This document shows positions 17,013 to 49,442 of a stretch of DNA of 64,000 bases, in pieces. Within the stretch, counting starts at the first letter, position 1, and each line of letters starts with the position of its first letter. The stretch lies in NCBI GenBank assembly GCA_021792795.1, contig JAJYUB010000013.1:1-64000 (forward strand). Direction: 5' to 3'. The notes beneath the pieces were generated by a model that saw only the letters and a program-made list of their open reading frames with translations, searched no databases and was not told where the DNA came from. This DNA is from Acidobacteriota bacterium. GTDB lineage: Bacteria > Acidobacteriota > Terriglobia > Terriglobales > Acidobacteriaceae. A program made the translations under genes and the position numbers.

Positions 17013-17039
17013 TCGCTTTTACTACGAAGGGGATTCGCC

Positions 17040-17936
17040 ATGGCCAAGCTTTTCGAAAATCCTAGATTCATTGCTATTGAAGGCCCGATCCGCGCCGGAA
17101 AATCCACATTAGCCACGCTGCTGGCCCAGGAAATCGGCGCCACGCGCATCATTGAGCCACAGCAGAATCCCTTCCTGTCGCCATTCTATCGCGGCGAAAG
17201 AAGCGCTGCCTTTCCCGCGCAAATGTGGTTCCTGATGTCGCGTTATGAGCAGCTATGTGCTGCCGCCGAGCGCGACGCCCAGAGTGGCAAATCGGCCCCT
17301 ATGGTGGCCGACTACATTTTTGAGAAAGACAAGCTGTTCGCCAATCTGAATCTGAGCGATGACGAGTTGGCGCTGTACGAGCGGCAGTTTCAATACTTCC
17401 GCGACCAGTTGCCCACCCCCGACCTGGTGATTTATCTGCAGACCTCGCCCAAGGTGCTGCGCACCCGCCTGGCCCGCAAAGGAGTGCCCGAGGAACAGGC
17501 GATTTCCGGCCGCTATCTGGAGCAGGTCACGGAAGCCTACGAACACTTCTTCTTCCACTACACCGCCAGCGATCTGCTGATCGTGAACACGGACGACATC
17601 GACTTTGTGCGCAATAACGAGGACCTGCAAACCCTGCTGCGGCGGCTGAAGGAGCCCGTCCACGGCACGCAATACTTCCTGCCGCTCGGCAAGGTTCAGA
17701 CTAACGGCTTGGAGAATTTCTGTAGCCTGCTAAAGCACGGCATTTCCGACAAGTTCGTGAGCGTAGAGCCATTCCACGTTTTTCCCTGTCTGGATGAGCA
17801 AACCTTCCGCTACAATCATCACGAAGGCTTCAAAAACGGCGACCGATGCGACGCAGCCGTACGGCAGGTCGTCGGTAAGCGGCTCACGCTCGATCAATTG
17901 ACTGGCAAGAATCAGTCGGGGGTCTTCCTTAATTGA
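17040..17936 (+). CDS. Deoxynucleoside kinase fused in frame to a transposase remnant
   Basis: 298 residues from ATG 17040 (GAAGGGG site 8 bases upstream). Residues 1 to about 216 are a deoxynucleoside kinase of the dGK/dAK/dCK type: a P-loop variant GPIRAGKST (residues 15-23), the substrate-binding region MWFLMSRYEQ, VADYIFEKD, DLVIYLQTSP, and the lid RLARKGVPEEQAI. These salvage enzymes normally end near GTQYFLPL. From about residue 217 the protein continues as an IS1595-type transposase tail (TNGLENFCSLLKHG, VSVEPFHVF, VVGKRLTLDQLTGK). The chimeric end marks the left edge of restriction island 1 and has probably replaced the kinase's own last residues. Whether the fused protein is active is unknown. 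Confidence 0.85.
   Translation: MAKLFENPRFIAIEGPIRAGKSTLATLLAQEIGATRIIEPQQNPFLSPFYRGERSAAFPAQMWFLMSRYEQLCAAAERDAQSGKSAPMVADYIFEKDKLFANLNLSDDELALYERQFQYFRDQLPTPDLVIYLQTSPKVLRTRLARKGVPEEQAISGRYLEQVTEAYEHFFFHYTASDLLIVNTDDIDFVRNNEDLQTLLRRLKEPVHGTQYFLPLGKVQTNGLENFCSLLKHGISDKFVSVEPFHVFPCLDEQTFRYNHHEGFKNGDRCDAAVRQVVGKRLTLDQLTGKNQSGVFLN
17691..17936 (+). mobile_element. IS1595-family (ISXO2-like) transposase 3' remnant
   Basis: The reading frame here gives TNGLENFCSLLKHG, SVEPFHVFPCLDEQTFRYNH and AAVRQVVGKRLTLDQLTGK. These are the C-terminal blocks of ISXO2-like transposases (family pattern NGLENFWSLLKRG, SVEPFHLFRYLDEQ, VGKRLT...LTGK). Several consensus residues have changed (CSLL for WSLL, FPC for FRY), which suggests decay. 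The catalytic DDE core and the inverted repeats are not present, so this is a scrap left by insertion or recombination. It lies exactly between the kinase and the methyltransferase gene. Confidence 0.75.
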
Positions 17937-18904
17937 AAAACGACGGCAAGAACGTGGCAAGGGCAAAACGTAAGGAGGCGGCGCCTGGATTGTCGGTAGT
18001 CTCTCTGTTCTCCGGCTGTGGTGGACTAGACCTCGGATTCGAGGGCGGGTTTGACGCATTTGGCACTGAGTACAGGCGGCTTCCATTCAATATCACATGG
18101 GCAAACGATCTCAACCCGGTAGCTTGCCGCAGCTATAAGAAGAACCTCGCAGACCACATCCATTGTGGCGACGTATGGGAAGCGCTGAACACAATGCCTA
18201 AACGGGCGGATGTGGTAATCGGTGGATTCCCATGCCAAGACCTCTCGATCAACGGCTTGCGTAAAGGTGTAGCAGGAGTAAAAAGCGGTCTGTATCGCGC
18301 GATGGTTGAGGCAGTCGTTAGGTTGAAGCCGAAGGCGTTTGTAGCCGAAAACGTGCGTGGCCTCCTATTTCATTACAACAAAGACTCTCTGGAGCAGGTA
18401 CTAAATGACTTCAAAGCTCTCGGCTATGAGGTAAATGTGGGTTTGTATCTGGCTGCGGATTACGGGGTACCACAGATGCGGCAACGTGTTTTTATAGTAG
18501 GAACGCTTCCCAAAGTAAAGTCGTTTGTGCCGCCCGTGCCTGTGCGAACGAAGGCAAACTGGATGACCTCCAAAGAGGCTGTAGGCGATCTTGAAGACAT
18601 GCCTGAGCGCGAGGACATCAATCATATTTGGAGTCGGGCCGAGCGTAGCCCTGAACAGGGCAACCGTAAGCTAAAAGCAGATCGTCCGGCAGACACAATC
18701 CGCGCAGAGTGCCACGGCAACATCCAATACCACTACAAATTGCCGAGACGCATCTCCATGAGAGAGGCTGCCCGCTTCCAGTCATTCCCTGATAGCTTCA
18801 TCTTTGACGGTAAGCTGCGTGAAACTGAGCGCCAGGTTGGGAACGCGGTTCCTCCCATTATGGGTTGGCATATCGCCGAAGCATTGAGCCGGAGTCTTCA
18901 GTGA
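17933..18904 (+). CDS. DNA (cytosine-5-)-methyltransferase, restriction island 1
   Basis: Up to 323 residues. C5-methyltransferase motifs in order: motif I VVSLFSGCGGLDLGFEG, motif IV GGFPCQDLS with catalytic Cys101, motif VI VAENVRGL, motif VIII YGVPQMRQRVFIVG, and motifs IX-X REAARFQSFPDSF and RQVGNAVPP. The variable target-recognition region is short. The longest start is a TTG at 17933, overlapping the upstream stop. A TTG at 17990, 11 bases after a perfect AAGGAGG (17972-17978), is a strong alternative and would begin right at motif I. The gene overlaps the endonuclease gene by 4 bases and is followed by vsr, so it is the modification half of a type II system. Confidence 0.9.
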   Translation: MKNDGKNVARAKRKEAAPGLSVVSLFSGCGGLDLGFEGGFDAFGTEYRRLPFNITWANDLNPVACRSYKKNLADHIHCGDVWEALNTMPKRADVVIGGFPCQDLSINGLRKGVAGVKSGLYRAMVEAVVRLKPKAFVAENVRGLLFHYNKDSLEQVLNDFKALGYEVNVGLYLAADYGVPQMRQRVFIVGTLPKVKSFVPPVPVRTKANWMTSKEAVGDLEDMPEREDINHIWSRAERSPEQGNRKLKADRPADTIRAECHGNIQYHYKLPRRISMREAARFQSFPDSFIFDGKLRETERQVGNAVPPIMGWHIAEALSRSLQ

Positions 18905-19890
18905 CACGCGAAGATTTCGAGAGAATGCTCGGCAAAGCTGTCGTGCAACTTGGCGATGAAGTAAGGCAGAGTGCGAAGTATCATTCTCCCTCAGATTTCG
19001 AGCAGCGTGTCTTTGACGTTCTGCGGAACATCGCGGCTGGAGAGAAGATTGATATTAACCCAACTTTTCATCCGCACGCATTCCCCGATATTCGCGCTAA
19101 CGGCTATGGGATAGAAGTCAAGACAACGGCCAAAGATTCGTGGATCAGTGTTGGCAACAGCGTATTTGAGGGGATGCGCGATCCATCTGTAAAACAGATA
19201 TACGTTGTCTTCGGAAAGATGGGCGGTATGCCGTCCGTGCAATGGGGACGATATGAAGATCGAATAACGCATGTCAGAATTTCTCATGCGCCACGCTTTG
19301 TTTTGGAGATGGATCGGGACTCTTCTTTGTTTGGGAAGATGAAGATTTCATACGATGAATTCTCCCAGCTTCCACCCGACGGAAAAATGAAACACGTCCG
19401 CGACTATTCACGCGGACGGCTCAAGGATGGCGAGCGTCTTTGGTGGCTGGAGGACCAGGACAGCCCTGGAAAACCGCTGGAAGTAAAACTGTATATGAGT
19501 CTCACGAAGCCAGAAAAGATAAAGCTACGCGCTGAGGGCGCGTTGCTGTTTCCTGAAATCGTCTCTGGCTCCAGAGTGAAAGACAAGTATAACGACGTGG
19601 CGTTCTTTTTCTTGAGGTATCACAATGTATTTTGCCCGCAGACTCGCGATTTGTTTTCTGCTGGGAGCGTGGCAGGGAAAGAGCGCGGCGGAAACTACCT
19701 GCAGCGGTCACTCAAGAACATCGAAGCCCAGATGGTTGAAGCTGCCGAACGACTACCATCTGACCTGATAGAGGAATACTGGGGCGTGCGAGTAGAACCG
19801 AAAGATAGAATCAAATTCTGGCTTGGCCGCGCTGACAGACTGGCAAAAAATTGGAGACCGTCGGAGCACTTATTTATAGAGACAAAGTGA
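18901..19890 (+). CDS. Type II restriction endonuclease, PD-(D/E)xK fold, restriction island 1
   Basis: 329 residues from the GTG at 18901, which overlaps the methyltransferase TGA (GTGA). The nuclease core is FPDIRANGYGIEVKTT: Pro62-Asp63, eight residues, then Glu72-Val-Lys74, the classic PD-(D/E)xK signature. It is preceded by a conserved acidic helix (SDFEQRVFDVL). The rest has no recognisable domain, as is normal for restriction enzymes. Its position between a C5 methyltransferase and Vsr indicates the cutting partner. NgoBV-like enzymes (GGNNCC) are one possible family, but I cannot confirm the specificity from sequence. Codon use looks less GC-rich than in the surrounding core genes. 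Confidence 0.8.
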   Translation: MTREDFERMLGKAVVQLGDEVRQSAKYHSPSDFEQRVFDVLRNIAAGEKIDINPTFHPHAFPDIRANGYGIEVKTTAKDSWISVGNSVFEGMRDPSVKQIYVVFGKMGGMPSVQWGRYEDRITHVRISHAPRFVLEMDRDSSLFGKMKISYDEFSQLPPDGKMKHVRDYSRGRLKDGERLWWLEDQDSPGKPLEVKLYMSLTKPEKIKLRAEGALLFPEIVSGSRVKDKYNDVAFFFLRYHNVFCPQTRDLFSAGSVAGKERGGNYLQRSLKNIEAQMVEAAERLPSDLIEEYWGVRVEPKDRIKFWLGRADRLAKNWRPSEHLFIETK

Positions 19891-19939
19891 AACCACAGGC
19901 AGCCGGAAAGGAAACAAGTAAAACAAAAACCTCAGTAGC

Positions 19940-20344
19940 ATGGATACACTCACTAAGCCGGAACGCAGTGTCCGCATGGGTCTCATTCGGTCTACGGATA
20001 CCAAGCCAGAAATTGCAGTGCGTCGGCTAGTTTTTGGAATGGGTTATCGGTATCGGCTACACGGCAAGAATCTGCCGGGCCATCCCGACCTCGTTTTCGC
20101 CTCTCGGTTGCAAGTTATTTTTGTGCATGGTTGTTTCTGGCATCTCCATCAAAACTGCTCCCACTGCCGTCCCCCGAAATCGAGGCAGGATTATTGGAAG
20201 CCGAAACTTCAACGCAACGCAGAAAGGGACAAACAGACACAACAGGAATTACGCCGCATGGGTTGGCGTTGTCTAGTGGTCTGGGAATGCGAACTTAGAA
20301 ACCAATCCAAGCTTATACGGAAGATCATGCAATTCCTCGCTTAA
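19940..20344 (+). CDS. vsr: Very short patch repair endonuclease, restriction island 1
   Basis: 134 residues, the usual Vsr length. Motifs: ERSVRMGLIRSTDTKPEIAV at the N-terminus, YRYRLHGKNLPGHPDLVF with the catalytic Asp, VIFVHGCFWHLHQNC, and the C-terminal LRRMGWRCLVVWECEL. Vsr nicks at T:G mismatches created when 5-methylcytosine deaminates, so repair can restore the C:G pair. Its place 49 bases behind a C5 methyltransferase-endonuclease pair fits protection of that system's own recognition sites. Confidence 0.95.
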   Translation: MDTLTKPERSVRMGLIRSTDTKPEIAVRRLVFGMGYRYRLHGKNLPGHPDLVFASRLQVIFVHGCFWHLHQNCSHCRPPKSRQDYWKPKLQRNAERDKQTQQELRRMGWRCLVVWECELRNQSKLIRKIMQFLA

Positions 20345-42876: not shown

Positions 42877-43527
42877 ATGTCACCTGTGACAGAAACAATT
42901 TCAGCCGCGATGGTGAAGGAGCTGCGCGAGAAGACCGGCGCTCCGATGATGGACTGCCGCAATGCTCTGACAGAAGCCAAGGGCGACATGGAAGAAGCTG
43001 TGGTCGTGCTGCGCAAGCGCGGCATGGCATCGGCGGCCAAGAAGGCCAGCCGCACCGCCAGCGAAGGCGCGGTGGGAACGTATATCCACGCCGGCGGCAA
43101 AATCGGCGTGTTGCTGGAAATCAATTGTGAGAGCGATTTTGTCGCCCGCACGGCGGACTTTCAGGAATTGCTGAAAGACATTGCCATGCACATCGCAGCC
43201 ACCGATCCGCGGTATATCCGCAAGGAAGATGTGACCGCGGAAGACCTGGAACGCGAGAAGGACATCTATCGCGCACAGGCCGCGCAGACCGGCAAGCCCG
43301 CTCCGGTGATTGAAAAGATCGTCGAAGGGAAAATGTCGAAGTTCTACGAGGAAGTCTGCCTGCTGGAGCAGCCCTTCATCAAGGAGCAGACTGTGACCAT
43401 CGCGCAGCTGATTGCGCAGAAGGTCGGCAAACTGGGCGAGAACATCCAGGTGCGCCGCTTCGCCCGCTTCAAAGTTGGCGATTCAAATTGGACTGTGGCC
43501 CAAATTTTGCCAGCAACGGTTCGCTGA
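42877..43527 (+). CDS. tsf: Elongation factor Ts
   Basis: 216 residues from ATG 42877, with GGGAAG 8 bases upstream; GTG 42868 is an alternative. The N-terminal UBA-like domain reads MVKELREKTGAPMMDCRNALTEA. The core contains the EF-Tu contact segment INCESDFVARTADF, and the C-terminal helix has LLEQPFIKEQTVTIAQLIAQK. This is the compact form, shorter than the ~280-residue E. coli protein. EF-Ts recycles EF-Tu from GDP to GTP. Its last 59 bases overlap the convergent propeller gene. Confidence 0.95.
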   Translation: MSPVTETISAAMVKELREKTGAPMMDCRNALTEAKGDMEEAVVVLRKRGMASAAKKASRTASEGAVGTYIHAGGKIGVLLEINCESDFVARTADFQELLKDIAMHIAATDPRYIRKEDVTAEDLEREKDIYRAQAAQTGKPAPVIEKIVEGKMSKFYEEVCLLEQPFIKEQTVTIAQLIAQKVGKLGENIQVRRFARFKVGDSNWTVAQILPATVR

Positions 43528-45032: not shown

Positions 45033-46049
45033 CTACTGTGCCCAGGCGAGGCCGTCGGCACCGGTGCCGGCGTTAATGAGCTTCTGCACCTTCCAGTCGG
45101 ACAAATCGATGGCGGCGACCTGATTTTTCACGTTGCAGGAGACGTAGGCAACCCTGCCGTCGGGACGCACCAGGATTTTCTGCGGCGCGCTGGGAACCAG
45201 AATGGTGTTGACCACATTCAACGTGGCAAGATCGACAACGGCCACCAAGTTGCGGCTGGGAATGGCCACCAGCAGCGAGCGGCCATCCTTCGTAGGAGCG
45301 GTGCCGTAGCCGGTTCCCGGTAACGGTACCCAAGCCTTCACTTTATTGGTTGCGGTGTCGATGACGGCGAGCCGAGGCTGCGTCTGGTCGGAGGTGAAGG
45401 CCATGCTGTTGTCGTTCGAAACGGAAATGCGCTGGGTCTCGCCAGAGATGGGAATGACGGCGAGCGTTTTGCGCGCCTTGATATCGAGGACGGACACGGT
45501 GCCCGGCCCGACGTTGGCGGTATAGCCGCGCGTTCCATCGGGGGAGATGGCGAGCATGTGGGATTGCTCCTGCCCGGTGGGAATGGCGCCGACAATTTTG
45601 AGCGTGCGCGGATCGACGAGGGTGACATCCTGATCGAGTTCCGTGGTCACGTAGAGCAATCCATCGTGCTTGTTGTAGATCACGCAATGGGGACGGACGC
45701 CATGGCCGAATTCGACATGGCCGATGATTTTGCGCGAGGGAAGGTCGATGACCAGCATTTCGTGGCCGTTGAGCCCCGGGTGGCCGACGCCGACGTTGCT
45801 GTAGATAGGAACGTAGGCACTGCGGCCGTCGGGAGAGGCGGCGGCTTCATGACCGTGCATGACCGTTACGCCTTCGGAGATGGTCGCAATTTGTTGCTGG
45901 AGTTCCGGATCGACGAGGCTGATATCTTTATCGCCCTGGTTGACGACCACCAGCAGGGGCGAGGCTTTGGCCGGGGTTTGCGCGTGGAGGGGAAGCGAAA
46001 GCAGGCAAACAGCAGTCAGCAGAAAAGAAAACGGGATGGTTGGGCGCAT
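45033..46049 (-). CDS. YVTN-type beta-propeller protein, exported
   Basis: 338 residues from ATG 46049. A signal peptide (IPFSFLLTAVCLLSLPLHAQ) is followed by seven-or-so propeller blades of the YVTN/40-residue repeat type: VVVNQGDKDISLVDPE, HEAAASPDGRSAYVPIY, KIIGHVEFGHGVRPHCVIY, LLYVTTELDQDVTLVDPRT, GYTANVGPGTVSVLDIKA, MAFTSDQTQPRLAVIDTAT and VAYVSCNVKNQVAAIDLS. Such proteins are periplasmic or surface-exposed; the ligand is unknown. It lies head-to-tail with the SBBP gene and 36 bases from restriction island 2, so it marks the left edge of that island. Confidence 0.82.
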   Translation of the reverse strand: MRPTIPFSFLLTAVCLLSLPLHAQTPAKASPLLVVVNQGDKDISLVDPELQQQIATISEGVTVMHGHEAAASPDGRSAYVPIYSNVGVGHPGLNGHEMLVIDLPSRKIIGHVEFGHGVRPHCVIYNKHDGLLYVTTELDQDVTLVDPRTLKIVGAIPTGQEQSHMLAISPDGTRGYTANVGPGTVSVLDIKARKTLAVIPISGETQRISVSNDNSMAFTSDQTQPRLAVIDTATNKVKAWVPLPGTGYGTAPTKDGRSLLVAIPSRNLVAVVDLATLNVVNTILVPSAPQKILVRPDGRVAYVSCNVKNQVAAIDLSDWKVQKLINAGTGADGLAWAQ

Positions 46050-46085
46050 GGCAACCGCAGTATACATTTGGGGCGTCGGAACATC

Positions 46086-46913
46086 TCAACCCCGCGAACG
46101 CTCCGCGTATTGGCGCCTGGTAATGGCATCGATCTGATCGCCAGGGACAAGCCGATAGTGACGTTCTTCGACGATGAGTACGCGCCCTGCCTCAACGGTC
46201 AACTCAAAGAGTGCTATGGCATCGTCCTCCATGAATTGCGCGGATACTGGCCGGCAATTCAAATCCGGAAATTTGGCCTCGCAACATGCGATATCCTGCG
46301 TGGTCTGTACAGGCGAAAGCTTGTCCGAACCACCTTTCGCCTGTACCGGTATTACGTAATGGGCGCCGTTCCGATTGAGTCCAACATAAATCTCGTCGAT
46401 TTCGATCTGTCCCATACCCTTTACATGAGTACGAAGATGGTTTTGTAGAGAATACGTCGTCAGCCCGAGAAAGATATCGATCAACCTGTTGTAGCGAACC
46501 TTAGCCAACAGTGCCTGTTCGTCGCCAAGCGCATAGGCGCCTATAATTTCCGGTGTGGAATCGGGGATCTTTGTGGCAGCTATGTCTTCGCGCGGCCTGA
46601 TCGTCGTCCCACCGGCCTCGACGAGCCTGAAGCGATACAAGCTTCTTCCAGCGCCTTCGATAATCCATGCCTTACCATTCGGCGCCGTTTTCAGTATTTC
46701 AGCAGGCAAGTCCCGTCGAAATTTAAAGCTGTAAATTACGTCGCCCAAGTTATCCGGGCGTTCGACGCCAACCGCTTCTGCCGCTTCAACCAACTCGTCG
46801 CGGTGGAACTCGAACCCCACTGTACCTTTCGCCCAATACTTCCGAAACAAATGGACGATGATCGGTTCGTACTGAGCCGCCTTGTCTGACCTTTTCACCA
46901 TTCCATCCTTCAA
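46086..46913 (-). CDS. Putative restriction endonuclease, restriction island 2
   Basis: 275 residues. The N-terminal half has a helix-rich stretch (HRDELVEAAEAVGVERPDN, DVIYSFKFRRDLP). The central EIDEIYVGLNRNG and YVIPVQAKGGSD gives Asp173 and Gln191-Ala-Lys193, a plausible PD-(D/E)xK variant (D...QxK) as seen in several restriction enzymes. The gene overlaps the methyltransferase stop by 4 bases (ATGA), the same coupled layout as in island 1. It shows no obvious similarity to the island 1 endonuclease. The family and specificity are not recognised; the restriction role is inferred from motif and context. Confidence 0.68.
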   Translation of the reverse strand: MKDGMVKRSDKAAQYEPIIVHLFRKYWAKGTVGFEFHRDELVEAAEAVGVERPDNLGDVIYSFKFRRDLPAEILKTAPNGKAWIIEGAGRSLYRFRLVEAGGTTIRPREDIAATKIPDSTPEIIGAYALGDEQALLAKVRYNRLIDIFLGLTTYSLQNHLRTHVKGMGQIEIDEIYVGLNRNGAHYVIPVQAKGGSDKLSPVQTTQDIACCEAKFPDLNCRPVSAQFMEDDAIALFELTVEAGRVLIVEERHYRLVPGDQIDAITRRQYAERSRG

Positions 46914-48217
46914 GCCATTGCAAAGTTGAGCTGCGCGACATCCGAACGGTCCGCCGGGCGAAGTCGCTTGCCGACGATATTCTCAGAGACGCCGTAATAC
47001 CTCGCCGCAGAGCTCATTGTCATTTGCAGCAGAAAATCCGGCCCGAGTTCGATAGCGTTCTCTGGGCGCTGAGGCCCTTTCTTCATCGACAGAAGCAGTT
47101 CCGAGGCCACCGCACGACCGAGAAGAGGCGGTACGGAGTTTCCAATCTGACGGAACCCATGCCATTTTGTCGCGTGCAGACGGAACCAGTCGGGATAGGA
47201 ATGAAGCCGCGCCGCTTCGCGGACAGTGATGCAGCGCGGGGCGTAGGGATGGATTGGGCGCGGTGAGGTGAACGCTCCGCGGTCGCTACCCGTTCCGGCT
47301 CGGAGAGTGTTGCATAGTCCTTCTGGATCGAGCTTGAGAAACCTGCTCACTGTTTCCACCTTGCCCGACTCGGTGGCTTTGAATCGCCGTTGCGACAATG
47401 GGGTATGTTCGGTGCGCATACTGGAGGTGAGACGCTTCGGGTCCCATTCTCTTGGATATGAAAAGTCCCGGACATCTTCATCCAATCCACGCAGAACCCG
47501 CGCATAGCGCGACGCTTTACCGAACCGGGCCTCAGGCACTGCATCGGATTCCAGCAACTCAGGATACCGATCGGCATTCGGCAGGTCTCCAATGGCTTCC
47601 CACACGGTTGTGGGCACAGCGGCAACAGCGGTCGGGTATTGTGGCAACGGCAGGCCATTCTTCGCGCCAATCAAGAAAAGTCGGCGCCGATCCTGAGGTA
47701 CGCCGAACTCGGCTGCATTGAGGACCCGATACGGCAAGAGCACTTCATATCCGTTGTCGTGGAAAGCCTCGATCAACTCATCGAGCAATTGTCTATGCTG
47801 GCCGACCGTCAGGCCTTTCACATTTTCGAATATGAAATAACGCGCATCCAATTCGACGGTGAGGCGGACAAATTCCAGAAGCAGGCGATTGCGCGGATCG
47901 TCCAAGGCCCTCTTCCCGATCAGCGAAAATCCTTGGCAAGGTGCCCCCCCGAAGACCACGTCCACGCGGGTGCCGTTCAGTTTCGCGGCTTTTCTGATAT
48001 CGGCTCCCGAGATCTTCGAAGCGTCCGCACATATCGTGGCGCAATTGGGGAAATTGAACTCATGCACGGCGCAATGGATAGGATCTATCTCGACCGCAGC
48101 CGCTACATCGAATCCCGCTTGTTCGAATCCAAGCGATAGACCGCCGGCACCTGCAAACAGGTCGATTCCGATCGGGCGTCCAACACCCTTTCCATGCTTA
48201 GGTCGCGAGAAATTCAT
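46910..48217 (-). CDS. DNA (cytosine-5-)-methyltransferase, restriction island 2
   Basis: 435 residues. Motifs: I IGIDLFAGAGGLSLGFEQAG, IV FGGAPCQGFSLIG with catalytic Cys94, VI FIFENVKGL, VIII FGVPQDRRRLFLIG, and IX-X REAARLHSYPDWF with RQIGNSVPP. The target-recognition region at about 190-300 is unrelated to that of island 1. A C-terminal extension of about 60 residues ends with MSSAARYYGVSENIVGKRLR, which has the look of a helix-turn-helix. Its start overlaps vsr by 20 bases and its stop overlaps the endonuclease by 4, so the three genes form one transcript in the order vsr, methyltransferase, endonuclease. Confidence 0.93.
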   Translation of the reverse strand: MNFSRPKHGKGVGRPIGIDLFAGAGGLSLGFEQAGFDVAAAVEIDPIHCAVHEFNFPNCATICADASKISGADIRKAAKLNGTRVDVVFGGAPCQGFSLIGKRALDDPRNRLLLEFVRLTVELDARYFIFENVKGLTVGQHRQLLDELIEAFHDNGYEVLLPYRVLNAAEFGVPQDRRRLFLIGAKNGLPLPQYPTAVAAVPTTVWEAIGDLPNADRYPELLESDAVPEARFGKASRYARVLRGLDEDVRDFSYPREWDPKRLTSSMRTEHTPLSQRRFKATESGKVETVSRFLKLDPEGLCNTLRAGTGSDRGAFTSPRPIHPYAPRCITVREAARLHSYPDWFRLHATKWHGFRQIGNSVPPLLGRAVASELLLSMKKGPQRPENAIELGPDFLLQMTMSSAARYYGVSENIVGKRLRPADRSDVAQLNFAMA

Positions 48218-48608
48218 CTAGTCGCTCCGTCAATTTCTCGGGTTTCTTGAGTTCGCATTGCCATATCGTGAGTATTGTCCATCCCAACTTTTTCAATTTT
48301 CGCCGAGTACGGCGATCCCGCGCCACATTGGCGCTGAACTTCAGTTTCCAAAAATTCACTCGCGACTTTGGCGTTGTTGCATACTTGCACTTCGGATGCC
48401 GGTGCCAAAAGCATCCATGCACGAATATCACTTTTCGGCGAGAAAGAAAGACCAAATCCGGTCGCCCCGGCAAGCTGATGTCGTAAAGCCGATAGCGATA
48501 TCCCAAGGCATGGACGATTTTCCGCACGGCCATTTCCGGCTTGGTGTCCTTGGAATGCACCGCAGCCATGATGAAGGAACGCTTTGCGCGATCGACATGG
48601 TCGGTCAC
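48198..48608 (-). CDS. vsr: Very short patch repair endonuclease, restriction island 2
   Basis: 136 residues from the GTG at 48608, with GAGG 8 bases upstream. The frame is open to an ATG at 48716, but the family begins with TDHVDRAKRSFIMAAVHSKDTKPE, so the shorter start is chosen. Motifs: LGYRYRLYDISLPGRPDLVF with the catalytic Asp, VIFVHGCFWHRHPKC and LKKLGWTILTIWQCEL. It repairs T:G mismatches at methylated sites. It is clearly diverged from the island 1 copy but of the same family. It is the first gene of its cassette and ends 130 bases from the divergent pyrH. Confidence 0.94.
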   Translation of the reverse strand: MTDHVDRAKRSFIMAAVHSKDTKPEMAVRKIVHALGYRYRLYDISLPGRPDLVFLSRRKVIFVHGCFWHRHPKCKYATTPKSRVNFWKLKFSANVARDRRTRRKLKKLGWTILTIWQCELKKPEKLTERLDEFLAT

Positions 48609-48737
48609 CCACTTTAGCCTCAGATCGTAGCCGTTTACTTGCGCTGCTGCCAATCCTAGCATAGGATGAGCAAGCTCAATCATGCCCCCTGTCAGGCTGC
48701 TGACGCACCTATCCAACTTCTGCGATACTCAAATGGC

Positions 48738-49442
48738 ATGTACAAACGAGTTCTTCTCAAGCTTTCTGGCGAGGCGCTGGCTGCTGACCGCGGCTTCGGG
48801 GTCGATGTCACACGGGTCCACGAAATCGCGGCGGAGATTGCCGACGTGCATTCGATGGGCGTGGAACTGGCGATTGTCGTGGGCGGAGGCAATTTCTTCC
48901 GCGGCGTAGCGGAGCAGGCGCAGGAGATGGACCGCGTCTCAGCCGACCATATGGGTATGCTGGCGACGATCATCAACGCGCTGGCGGTGCAGGACGCGCT
49001 GGAAAAGCAGAATGTCTTCTGCCGGGTGATGAGCGCCATTGAAATGAACCAGGTTTCGGAGCCATACATCCGCCGCCGGGCGATTCGGCATCTAGAAAAA
49101 GGACGGGTGGTGATCTTCGCCGCCGGCACCGGCAATCCATATTTTTCCACCGACACCGCCGCCTCGTTGCGTGCGATGGAAATCAAGGCAGATGTGTTGC
49201 TGAAGGCCACCAAGGTCGAGGGCATTTACAGTGCCGATCCCGCGCTGGATAAAGATGCAGTCAAGTTTGAAGAGATCAGCTATATGGAAATCCTGCAGCG
49301 CAATCTGCGAGTGATGGACATGACGGCTGTGAGTCTTTGCAAGGACAACGATCTGCCGATGATCATCTTCAGCATGAACCAACCGGGCAACATTCGACGC
49401 GCAATCGCCGGCGAAAAAGTTGGCTCCCTGGTCACCACGTAG
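48738..49442 (+). CDS. pyrH: Uridylate kinase
   Basis: 234 residues from ATG 48738. Amino-acid-kinase fold with [74 protein letters not shown] and [15 protein letters not shown]. It phosphorylates UMP to UDP in the cytoplasm. In most bacteria pyrH follows tsf and precedes frr. Here two propeller genes and restriction island 2 lie between tsf and pyrH, and frr is about 9 kb downstream. Confidence 0.96.

What the first reader, a model, noticed from the sequence alone, without database searches (positions are those of the whole stretch)
46086..48608. A second, unrelated methyltransferase-endonuclease-Vsr cassette 26 kb from the first
Island 2 encodes a different endonuclease, a methyltransferase with an unrelated recognition region and a diverged Vsr, in the order vsr-M-R rather than M-R-vsr. 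Two independent Vsr-bearing cassettes within about 31 kb are unusual. It suggests either a local integration hotspot or that each Vsr is tuned to its own methylated site. The endonuclease has a D...QAK variant core and may be a new family.
Basis: partly seen in the sequence, partly recalled or inferred. Interest (0 to 1): 0.6.

Follow-up and report, generated by a model that had tools for sequence, protein, structure and literature searches.

The report
Mobile restriction-modification cassette with mismatch-repair gene
A three-gene DNA defence unit (a likely DNA cutter, the methylase that would protect against it, and the repair enzyme for the methylase's mutational side effect) sits in front of an essential gene in an acidobacterium; close relatives carry it elsewhere, have the site empty, or hold a different unit of the same type there.

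Summary
Window 46086-48608 (minus strand) encodes vsr, a C5-cytosine methyltransferase and a 275-aa endonuclease, unrelated to the M-R-vsr set at 17.9-20.3 kb. The endonuclease is not a new family: a PADLOC type II REase model matches it at 2.5e-118, and relatives beside the same methyltransferase occur in several phyla. Its E171-I-D173...Q191-A-K193 core and AlphaFold model point to a PD-(D/E)XK nuclease. Two cassettes 26 kb apart are not exceptional: the genome has five vsr genes (chance of such a pair 0.13), and among 61 family genomes with two or more vsr, close pairs are as frequent as chance gives. A finer hotspot exists, the tsf-pyrH junction. Five of nine genus genomes with a pyrH found carry a vsr within 3 kb of it (expected 0.05; the five are not independent). 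The sister genome has the site empty and a homologous cassette elsewhere. One genome shows a 111-bp pyrH duplication. Another has an unrelated Eco29kI-type cassette there. The cassette is far less diverged between two species than its flanks, implying horizontal movement. Strict Vsr-methyltransferase co-adaptation is not supported (AU p 7e-5). Recognition sequence unknown.

The parts
46086..46913 (-). R: type II restriction endonuclease, 275 aa, putative PD-(D/E)XK with E171-I-D173...Q191-A-K193
   Evidence: PADLOC PDLC03404 2.5e-118; alignments; AF2 pLDDT 86.9; fold comparison
46910..48217 (-). M: C5-cytosine DNA methyltransferase, 435 aa, with a C-terminal HTH-like tail
   Evidence: PF00145 2e-64; PDLC03326 1.5e-167; tail ('HTH-like' rests on a sub-threshold Pfam hit and on inspection)
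48198..48608 (-). Vsr: putative T:G mismatch nicking endonuclease
   Evidence: TIGR00632 142.1 bits, cut-off 97.85; PF03852 1.7e-29
48609..48711 (.). spacer between vsr and pyrH, absent from empty sites G138 and G062, nearly identical in G156
48653..48667 (.). 15-bp palindrome ATCCTAGCATAGGAT upstream of vsr; its core is shared by the four pyrH-site copies (G000, G156, G114, G172); possible operator or promoter element (inference)
46086..48711 (.). island 2 as defined by comparison with the empty yncE-pyrH site (left edge uncertain by about 15 bp)
48738..49442 (+). pyrH (UMP kinase), right flank of the hotspot
   Evidence: name recalled from the translated sequence and operon context
45033..46067 (-). 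YncE-like beta-propeller protein, left flank in this genome
   Evidence: PF21783 4e-11
42880..43527 (+). tsf (EF-Ts), far left border of the hotspot interval
   Evidence: name recalled from sequence
17933..18904 (+). island 1 M (C5 methyltransferase)
   Evidence: PF00145 4.6e-64
18865..19890 (+). island 1 R (PDLC03508 4.3e-100)
19940..20344 (+). island 1 Vsr
   Evidence: TIGR00632 144.3 bits
17690..20513 (.). extent of island 1 against the site without it in G199 (about 350 bp there)

Best explanation
Island 2 is a small mobile type II restriction-modification unit with its own very-short-patch repair gene. M is inferred to put 5-methylcytosine on a specific sequence. R is inferred to be a PD-(D/E)XK nuclease that cuts the same sequence when unmethylated. 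Vsr is inferred to nick T:G mismatches left when the 5-methylcytosines deaminate, so that carrying the methyltransferase costs fewer mutations. No integrase gene lies in the unit. It moves horizontally among species of the genus, and units of this type have come to lie at the tsf-pyrH junction more than once, in one case with a long target duplication. Shown here by sequence: domains, family matches, empty and occupied sites, excess similarity over flanks, the duplication, and an unrelated cassette at the same junction. Inferred: all enzymatic activities, the recognition site and the transfer route.
For: Family matches. The same M-R core occurs in other phyla and on plasmids: an M homologue was found in 37 of 40 loci carrying R (misses L031, L035, L040; L031 and L040 are short contigs cut near R) and a Vsr in 23 of 40. 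G138 (sister of G000 in the flank tree) and G062 have yncE-pyrH without the island. G138 keeps an 81.5%-identical stretch matching window 46096-48608, the three genes only, on another contig. G000-G156 4-fold-site differences are 0.09-0.10 in V/M/R but 0.32-0.48 in pyrH, acyltransferase and OPT. G172 has a 111-bp, 94% direct repeat of the pyrH start flanking M-vsr. G212, which differs from G114 by only 0.05-0.15 at 4-fold sites in the flanks, has a different vsr-M-R there (R = PF09517 Eco29kI 4.2e-67). Vsr within 3 kb of pyrH: five genomes, expected 0.05.
Against: No flanking direct repeat of 18 bp or more was found in the window itself. In 80 other family genomes queried (pyrH found in 78), none of 143 listed vsr lies within 3 kb of pyrH, so the hotspot is known only in this genus; and four genus genomes with pyrH (G138, G062, G186, G224) have no vsr there. 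The four M2-type copies at pyrH share junction sequence, so they may go back to one insertion spread by recombination; at least two independent insertions are shown, not five. The G156 copy runs into a contig end, on a contig that appears to be L006's record (same length, identical last 3000 bases; title gives coverage 3.3), so a mis-join cannot be excluded. G114's M and R are frameshifted. VIA Z for R tops out at 7.8, below the tool's own comfort level of 8. No activity was tested.
Confidence: 0.86

Rival explanations
1. Ancestral cassette: one vsr-M-R insertion at pyrH in the genus ancestor, inherited vertically and lost in G138, G062 and others, with no repeated targeting.
For: The four M2-type copies share the pyrH-side spacer.
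Against: G000 and G156 are not sisters in the flank tree, yet their cassettes are 3-5 times less diverged than their flanks. G212 has an unrelated cassette at the junction while its near relative G114 has the M2 type. G138's copy lies elsewhere.
Confidence: 0.1
2. The 31-kb stretch as a whole is an integration hotspot that attracted both cassettes.
For: Two cassettes within 31 kb. In three other family genomes a vsr lies 10.6, 15.2 and 23.2 kb from pyrH.
Against: The pair spacing is within chance (own genome 0.13; 2 close pairs observed against 0.9-2.2 expected). Island 1 has its own site and history, being shared with G138 only. Most of the sequence between the sites is collinear in G138.
Confidence: 0.12
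3. Each Vsr is tuned to the methylation site of its own cassette and co-evolves with the methyltransferase.
For: 47 of 52 vsr examined have a C5-methyltransferase frame within 2.5 kb, often overlapping (many of these loci were fetched because they carry M-R). The label 'M2 family' is clustered on the Vsr tree (5 changes against 16.8 shuffled), so pairings last for some time.
Against: M2-family Vsr proteins do not form one clade (AU p 7.3e-5, 22 against 29 rows). The downstream Vsr lineage groups with Vsr proteins of other cassettes. 17 of 40 R loci show no Vsr by tblastn, some being cut by contig ends. A multispecific Vsr is known (PMC6116569).
Confidence: 0.2

Closest known systems
XorII restriction-modification system with vsr homologue (Xanthomonas oryzae)
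   Same: Methyltransferase and endonuclease (PMC4853030, passages) and a vsr homologue (title of Choi and Leach 1994, seen in that reference list); that M is a C5 enzyme and the gene adjacency are recalled.
   Different: No XorII sequence was compared here. An annotator called a Klebsiella relative of M (53.8% identical) 'Modification methylase AplI' rather than XorII, so shared specificity is doubtful.
PADLOC type II REase model PDLC03404 and MTase model PDLC03326
   Same: Nearly full-length matches to R (2.5e-118) and M (1.5e-167).
   Different: The models carry no enzyme name or recognition site in the tool output.
Small enterobacterial and Paracoccus plasmids with M-R or vsr-M-R
   Same: About 57% identical R beside a related M. 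Paracoccus p12374 has the same vsr-M-R order.
   Different: Plasmid-borne; the three enterobacterial regions examined (L041, L042, L045) show no vsr; the Paracoccus Vsr lies in another group of the tree.
[quoted passage not shown]
   Same: Two active Vsr enzymes in one genome, one acting in all T:G contexts (PMC6116569, passages including the abstract).
   Different: Two Vsr there; here five in this genome and up to seven in the genus.
Insertion of R-M systems with long target duplication (Nobusato et al. 2000, not read; cited in PMC3031569, passages)
   Same: G172 has a 111-bp target duplication flanking M-vsr.
   Different: No duplication of 18 bp or more in the window copy.

Membership tests
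Vsr mismatch endonuclease | match above the curated cut-off of TIGR00632 | tested here: met
   142.1 bits against 97.85
Vsr mismatch endonuclease | T:G-specific nicking in a methylation context | not testable with these tools
   needs biochemistry
Type II restriction-modification system | DNA methyltransferase beside an endonuclease gene | tested here: met
   M found near R in 37 of 40 loci
Type II restriction-modification system | methylation blocks cleavage at the same sequence | not testable with these tools
   recognition sequence unknown; counts of palindromes did not single one out
PD-(D/E)XK nuclease | acidic residue and (D/E/Q)xK on adjacent core strands | tested here: met
   E171, D173, Q191 and K193 invariant in the 26 sequences of A2 (a frameshifted row, L038, had been left out); model strands 168-179 and 185-193. 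That Q is an accepted variant is recalled.
PD-(D/E)XK nuclease | core fold match to solved members | tested here: inconclusive
   VIA rows over residues 119-256 are mostly nucleases I recall as PD-(D/E)XK (NucS, Hjc, Cas4, AddAB, MspJI), but the best Z is 7.8; best Foldseek E is 2.1e-3
XorII system | sequence relationship to M.XorII and R.XorII and CGATCG specificity | not tested
   no XorII sequence was obtained
Insertion with long target duplication | long direct repeat of target flanking the R-M unit | tested here: inconclusive
   met in G172 (111 bp, 94%); not found in the window copy
Eco29kI-type system (at the same junction in G212) | PF09517 match of R | tested here: met
   E 4.2e-67 for L087:3110-3901; belongs to G212, not to island 2

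The most novel reading that the evidence does not exclude
Vsr (a relative of some homing endonucleases, recalled; PADLOC's homing-endonuclease model also hits the Vsr C-terminus weakly, 1.6e-4), or R, itself drives movement of integrase-free R-M cassettes into a preferred essential-operon site in front of pyrH. Vsr would then be a mobility factor as well as a repair enzyme, explaining why unrelated vsr-M-R units share this landing site and why this genus holds up to seven vsr genes.
Probability: 0.05. Interest if true: 0.75.

Novelty: new member of a known kind. Interest (0 to 1): 0.42.

Why it matters
It gives a natural series for how integrase-free restriction-modification units enter and leave an essential operon: empty, occupied, relocated, target-duplicated and differently occupied sites in one genus. 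It also makes testable whether Vsr is a dedicated partner of one methyltransferase or an exchangeable repair module.

Tried and rejected
Pair clustering as the main finding: rejected, because spacing is within chance.

New nuclease family: rejected. Pfam's one hit to R at E up to 0.1, GFO_IDH_MocA_C2 at 0.0039, is below its cut-off and was set aside. The PDB sequence searches gave nothing usable (phmmer none up to E 10; profile best 0.18).

XorII membership: gene organisation (recalled) was the lead; no sequence test was possible. The paper searches and passages give context only. PMC2853133 is not held.

Recognition site from palindrome depletion: no motif tracks presence of R across eight genomes, each represented only by 36 to 114 kb of fetched loci.

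Operator idea for the 15-bp palindrome: its core is in the four pyrH-site copies and was not found upstream of vsr in G138's other-site copy, so it may just be part of the shared junction.

Vsr tree: L044 was dropped because its open frame was extracted wrongly; results with it (p 3.7e-6, 23 against 29 rows) and without it (7.3e-5, 22 against 29) agree.

Conserved breakpoint in front of pyrH: only about 27 bp before ATG is alike in the genomes compared, so a common edge may reflect selection on the pyrH leader rather than a specific integration site.

Searches for print on R-M units at tsf-pyrH: pyrH, tsf, restriction-modification, insertion; 15 of 30 papers listed; vsr, restriction-modification, hotspot, genomic island; 15 of 173 listed; long target duplication, restriction-modification; 17 of 17 listed. 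No listed title or abstract start mentions this junction; of these papers I read passages of two found and none's or 90's. This is not proof that it is unpublished.

Full report
What is there. On the minus strand, 48608 to 46086, lie vsr, a C5-cytosine methyltransferase (M, 435 aa) and a 275-aa endonuclease (R), with overlapping reading frames. Vsr passes TIGR00632 (142.1 bits, cut-off 97.85), M matches PF00145 (2e-64), and R has no Pfam match over its cut-off and no NCBIfam match. R does match a PADLOC type II REase model over residues 12-269 at 2.5e-118, and M matches PDLC03326 at 1.5e-167. Island 1 (M-R-vsr, 17933-20344) has an R of a different model (PDLC03508, 4.3e-100). Between islands, identity is 49.6% for Vsr and 28.6% for M, and R shows no significant similarity.

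R as a nuclease. In 26 aligned sequences (window and 25 relatives) E171, D173, Q191, A192 and K193 are invariant. The AlphaFold model (mean pLDDT 86.9) places D173 on strand 168-179 and Q191-x-K193 on strand 185-193, with helices before and after, as in the PD-(D/E)XK core (recalled). Foldseek's best E is 2.1e-3. VIA's list over residues 119-256 is mostly NucS/EndoMS, Hjc, Cas4-like, AddAB, BsaXI, DrdV, MspJI, splicing and viral cap-snatching endonucleases, best Z 7.8. Each match is weak; together they point to the same fold.

Is the pair unusual? The genome (4.04 Mb, 133 contigs) has five vsr genes, one with an internal stop. In the family sample 159 of 398 genomes have at least one vsr; in the genus 9 of 10 do, with counts 5,2,2,5,7,2,2,3,4,0. 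Random placement gives 0.9 to 2.2 such pairs, depending on how contig breaks are treated; simulated P of two or more is 0.29; for this genome alone the probability is 0.13. The spacing of the two islands needs no explanation.

The site. Flank comparison shows that G138 and G062 join yncE to pyrH with about 80 and 50 bp where the window has 2.6 kb. G138 is the sister of G000 in a tree of pyrH, acyltransferase, tsf and OPT (0.969 FastTree support). G138 keeps a homologous cassette, with homology limited to window 46096-48608, between other genes on another contig. G156 has the cassette beside pyrH; identity is 91-99% per 100 bp up to pyrH and 65-97% beyond. Four-fold-site differences are 0.09-0.10 in R, M and V against 0.32, 0.39 and 0.48 in pyrH, acyltransferase and OPT. 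That contig ends inside R and its coverage is low, so a mis-join is possible, though the copy is 95-97% rather than 100% identical. G114 holds tsf-R-M-vsr-pyrH, with M and R frameshifted. G172 holds M-vsr; R was found neither there nor elsewhere in that genome, and 111 bp spanning the pyrH leader and start are repeated (94%) at the far end of M. G212 is close to G114 in the flanks (0.05-0.15) but carries an unrelated cassette there, oriented with pyrH: vsr, a C5 methyltransferase and an Eco29kI-type endonuclease (PF09517 4.2e-67).

Counting. pyrH was found in 9 of 10 genus genomes (G199 missing). In five (G000, G156, G114, G172, G212) a vsr lies within 3 kb of it; expected for the 29 vsr of the nine genomes is 0.05. 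The other four (G138, G062, G186, G224) have none there. In 80 other family genomes queried, pyrH was found in 78, and none of 143 listed vsr lies within 3 kb; the nearest are 10.6, 15.2 and 23.2 kb (G035, G129, G322). The hotspot is thus supported but known only in this genus. The four M2-type copies share junction sequence, so independent insertions number at least two.

Vsr as a module. Among 40 loci with R relatives (35 genome loci and 5 plasmid regions), 23 show a Vsr: 15 upstream of M, 7 downstream of R, 1 on the opposite strand; 17 show none, some of them cut by contig ends. On the Vsr tree the downstream group is a clade (99/96) that groups with Vsr of other cassettes. Holding all 22 M2-associated Vsr together is rejected (p-AU 7.3e-5, against 29 others). 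So one M-R family has been joined by Vsr of more than one lineage. Against a free exchange, the M2 label is still far more clustered than shuffled labels (5 against 16.8 changes). This fits the published multispecific gonococcal Vsr (PMC6116569, passages) better than strict tuning, but it does not measure specificity.

Island 1. Its R occurs in 2 of 398 family genomes, G000 and G138, at the same place. In G199 the site lacks it, with about 350 bp between the counterparts of window positions 17689 and 20514. Its left edge coincides with an in-frame IS1595-like transposase remnant (sub-threshold Pfam hit) fused to the deoxynucleoside kinase gene.

Mechanism. Enzyme activities follow from family membership (established knowledge) and were not tested. 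Movement of R-M systems with long target duplications has precedent (PMC3031569, passages, citing Nobusato et al. 2000, not read). The recognition sequence remains unknown: palindrome depletion does not track the cassette, and the one enzyme name seen on a close M relative, 'AplI', is an annotator's label.

Verdict. This is an ordinary kind of system in an informative setting: a mobile R-M-Vsr cassette at a tsf-pyrH hotspot seen in this genus.

Noticed in passing
window 17037-17933: The deoxynucleoside kinase gene ends in about 80 codons resembling an IS1595/ISXO2 transposase (PF12762, 0.00076, below its cut-off) that begin where synteny with the G199 site lacking island 1 stops.
   Followed up: partly
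L102 7132-13672 (G000:C85): A third vsr cassette of this genome (C5-MTase, 201-aa ORF, vsr) sits between murC-like and ftsQ/ftsA-like genes (names recalled from sequence); its relatives in G156 (L083) and G062 (L089) show no match to those neighbours in the stretches fetched.
   Followed up: partly
L104 8520-12795 (G000:C47): Divergent vsr/MTase pair with a 269-aa ORF next to a groL-like gene (name recalled); related sets occur in other genus members.
   Followed up: partly
L103 (G000:C9:29724-30074): A vsr copy with an internal TGA near a contig end.
   Followed up: no
L150 2453-3772 (Mycobacterium phage Cueylyss): Phage methylase 59% identical to M over 94% of its length; no R relative was found in the phage collection at E 1e-5. 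Possibly an anti-restriction methylase.
   Followed up: partly
M C-terminus, window 46913-47050: In 32 loci looked at, 31 have an M whose C-terminal tail resembles this one (HTH-like, varying around 'S-x-A-A-x-Y/F-G/K-V'; L035 had no M), possibly autoregulatory.
   Followed up: partly
window and other G000 loci: CAGCTG is strongly depleted (5 seen, 37 expected), also in several relatives; AGGCCT is depleted chiefly in G000 (7 of 33).
   Followed up: partly
L100/L101 (G108:C58:309415 and 324998): Another family genome with two vsr 15.6 kb apart, in different parts of the Vsr tree.
   Followed up: partly
L141 4159-5593 (G035:C9): A vsr of the same group as island 2's (100/98; 63% identical) with a C5-MTase fragment lies just upstream of the ribosomal-protein genes that precede rpsB-tsf, 10.6 kb from pyrH (gene names recalled).
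   Followed up: partly
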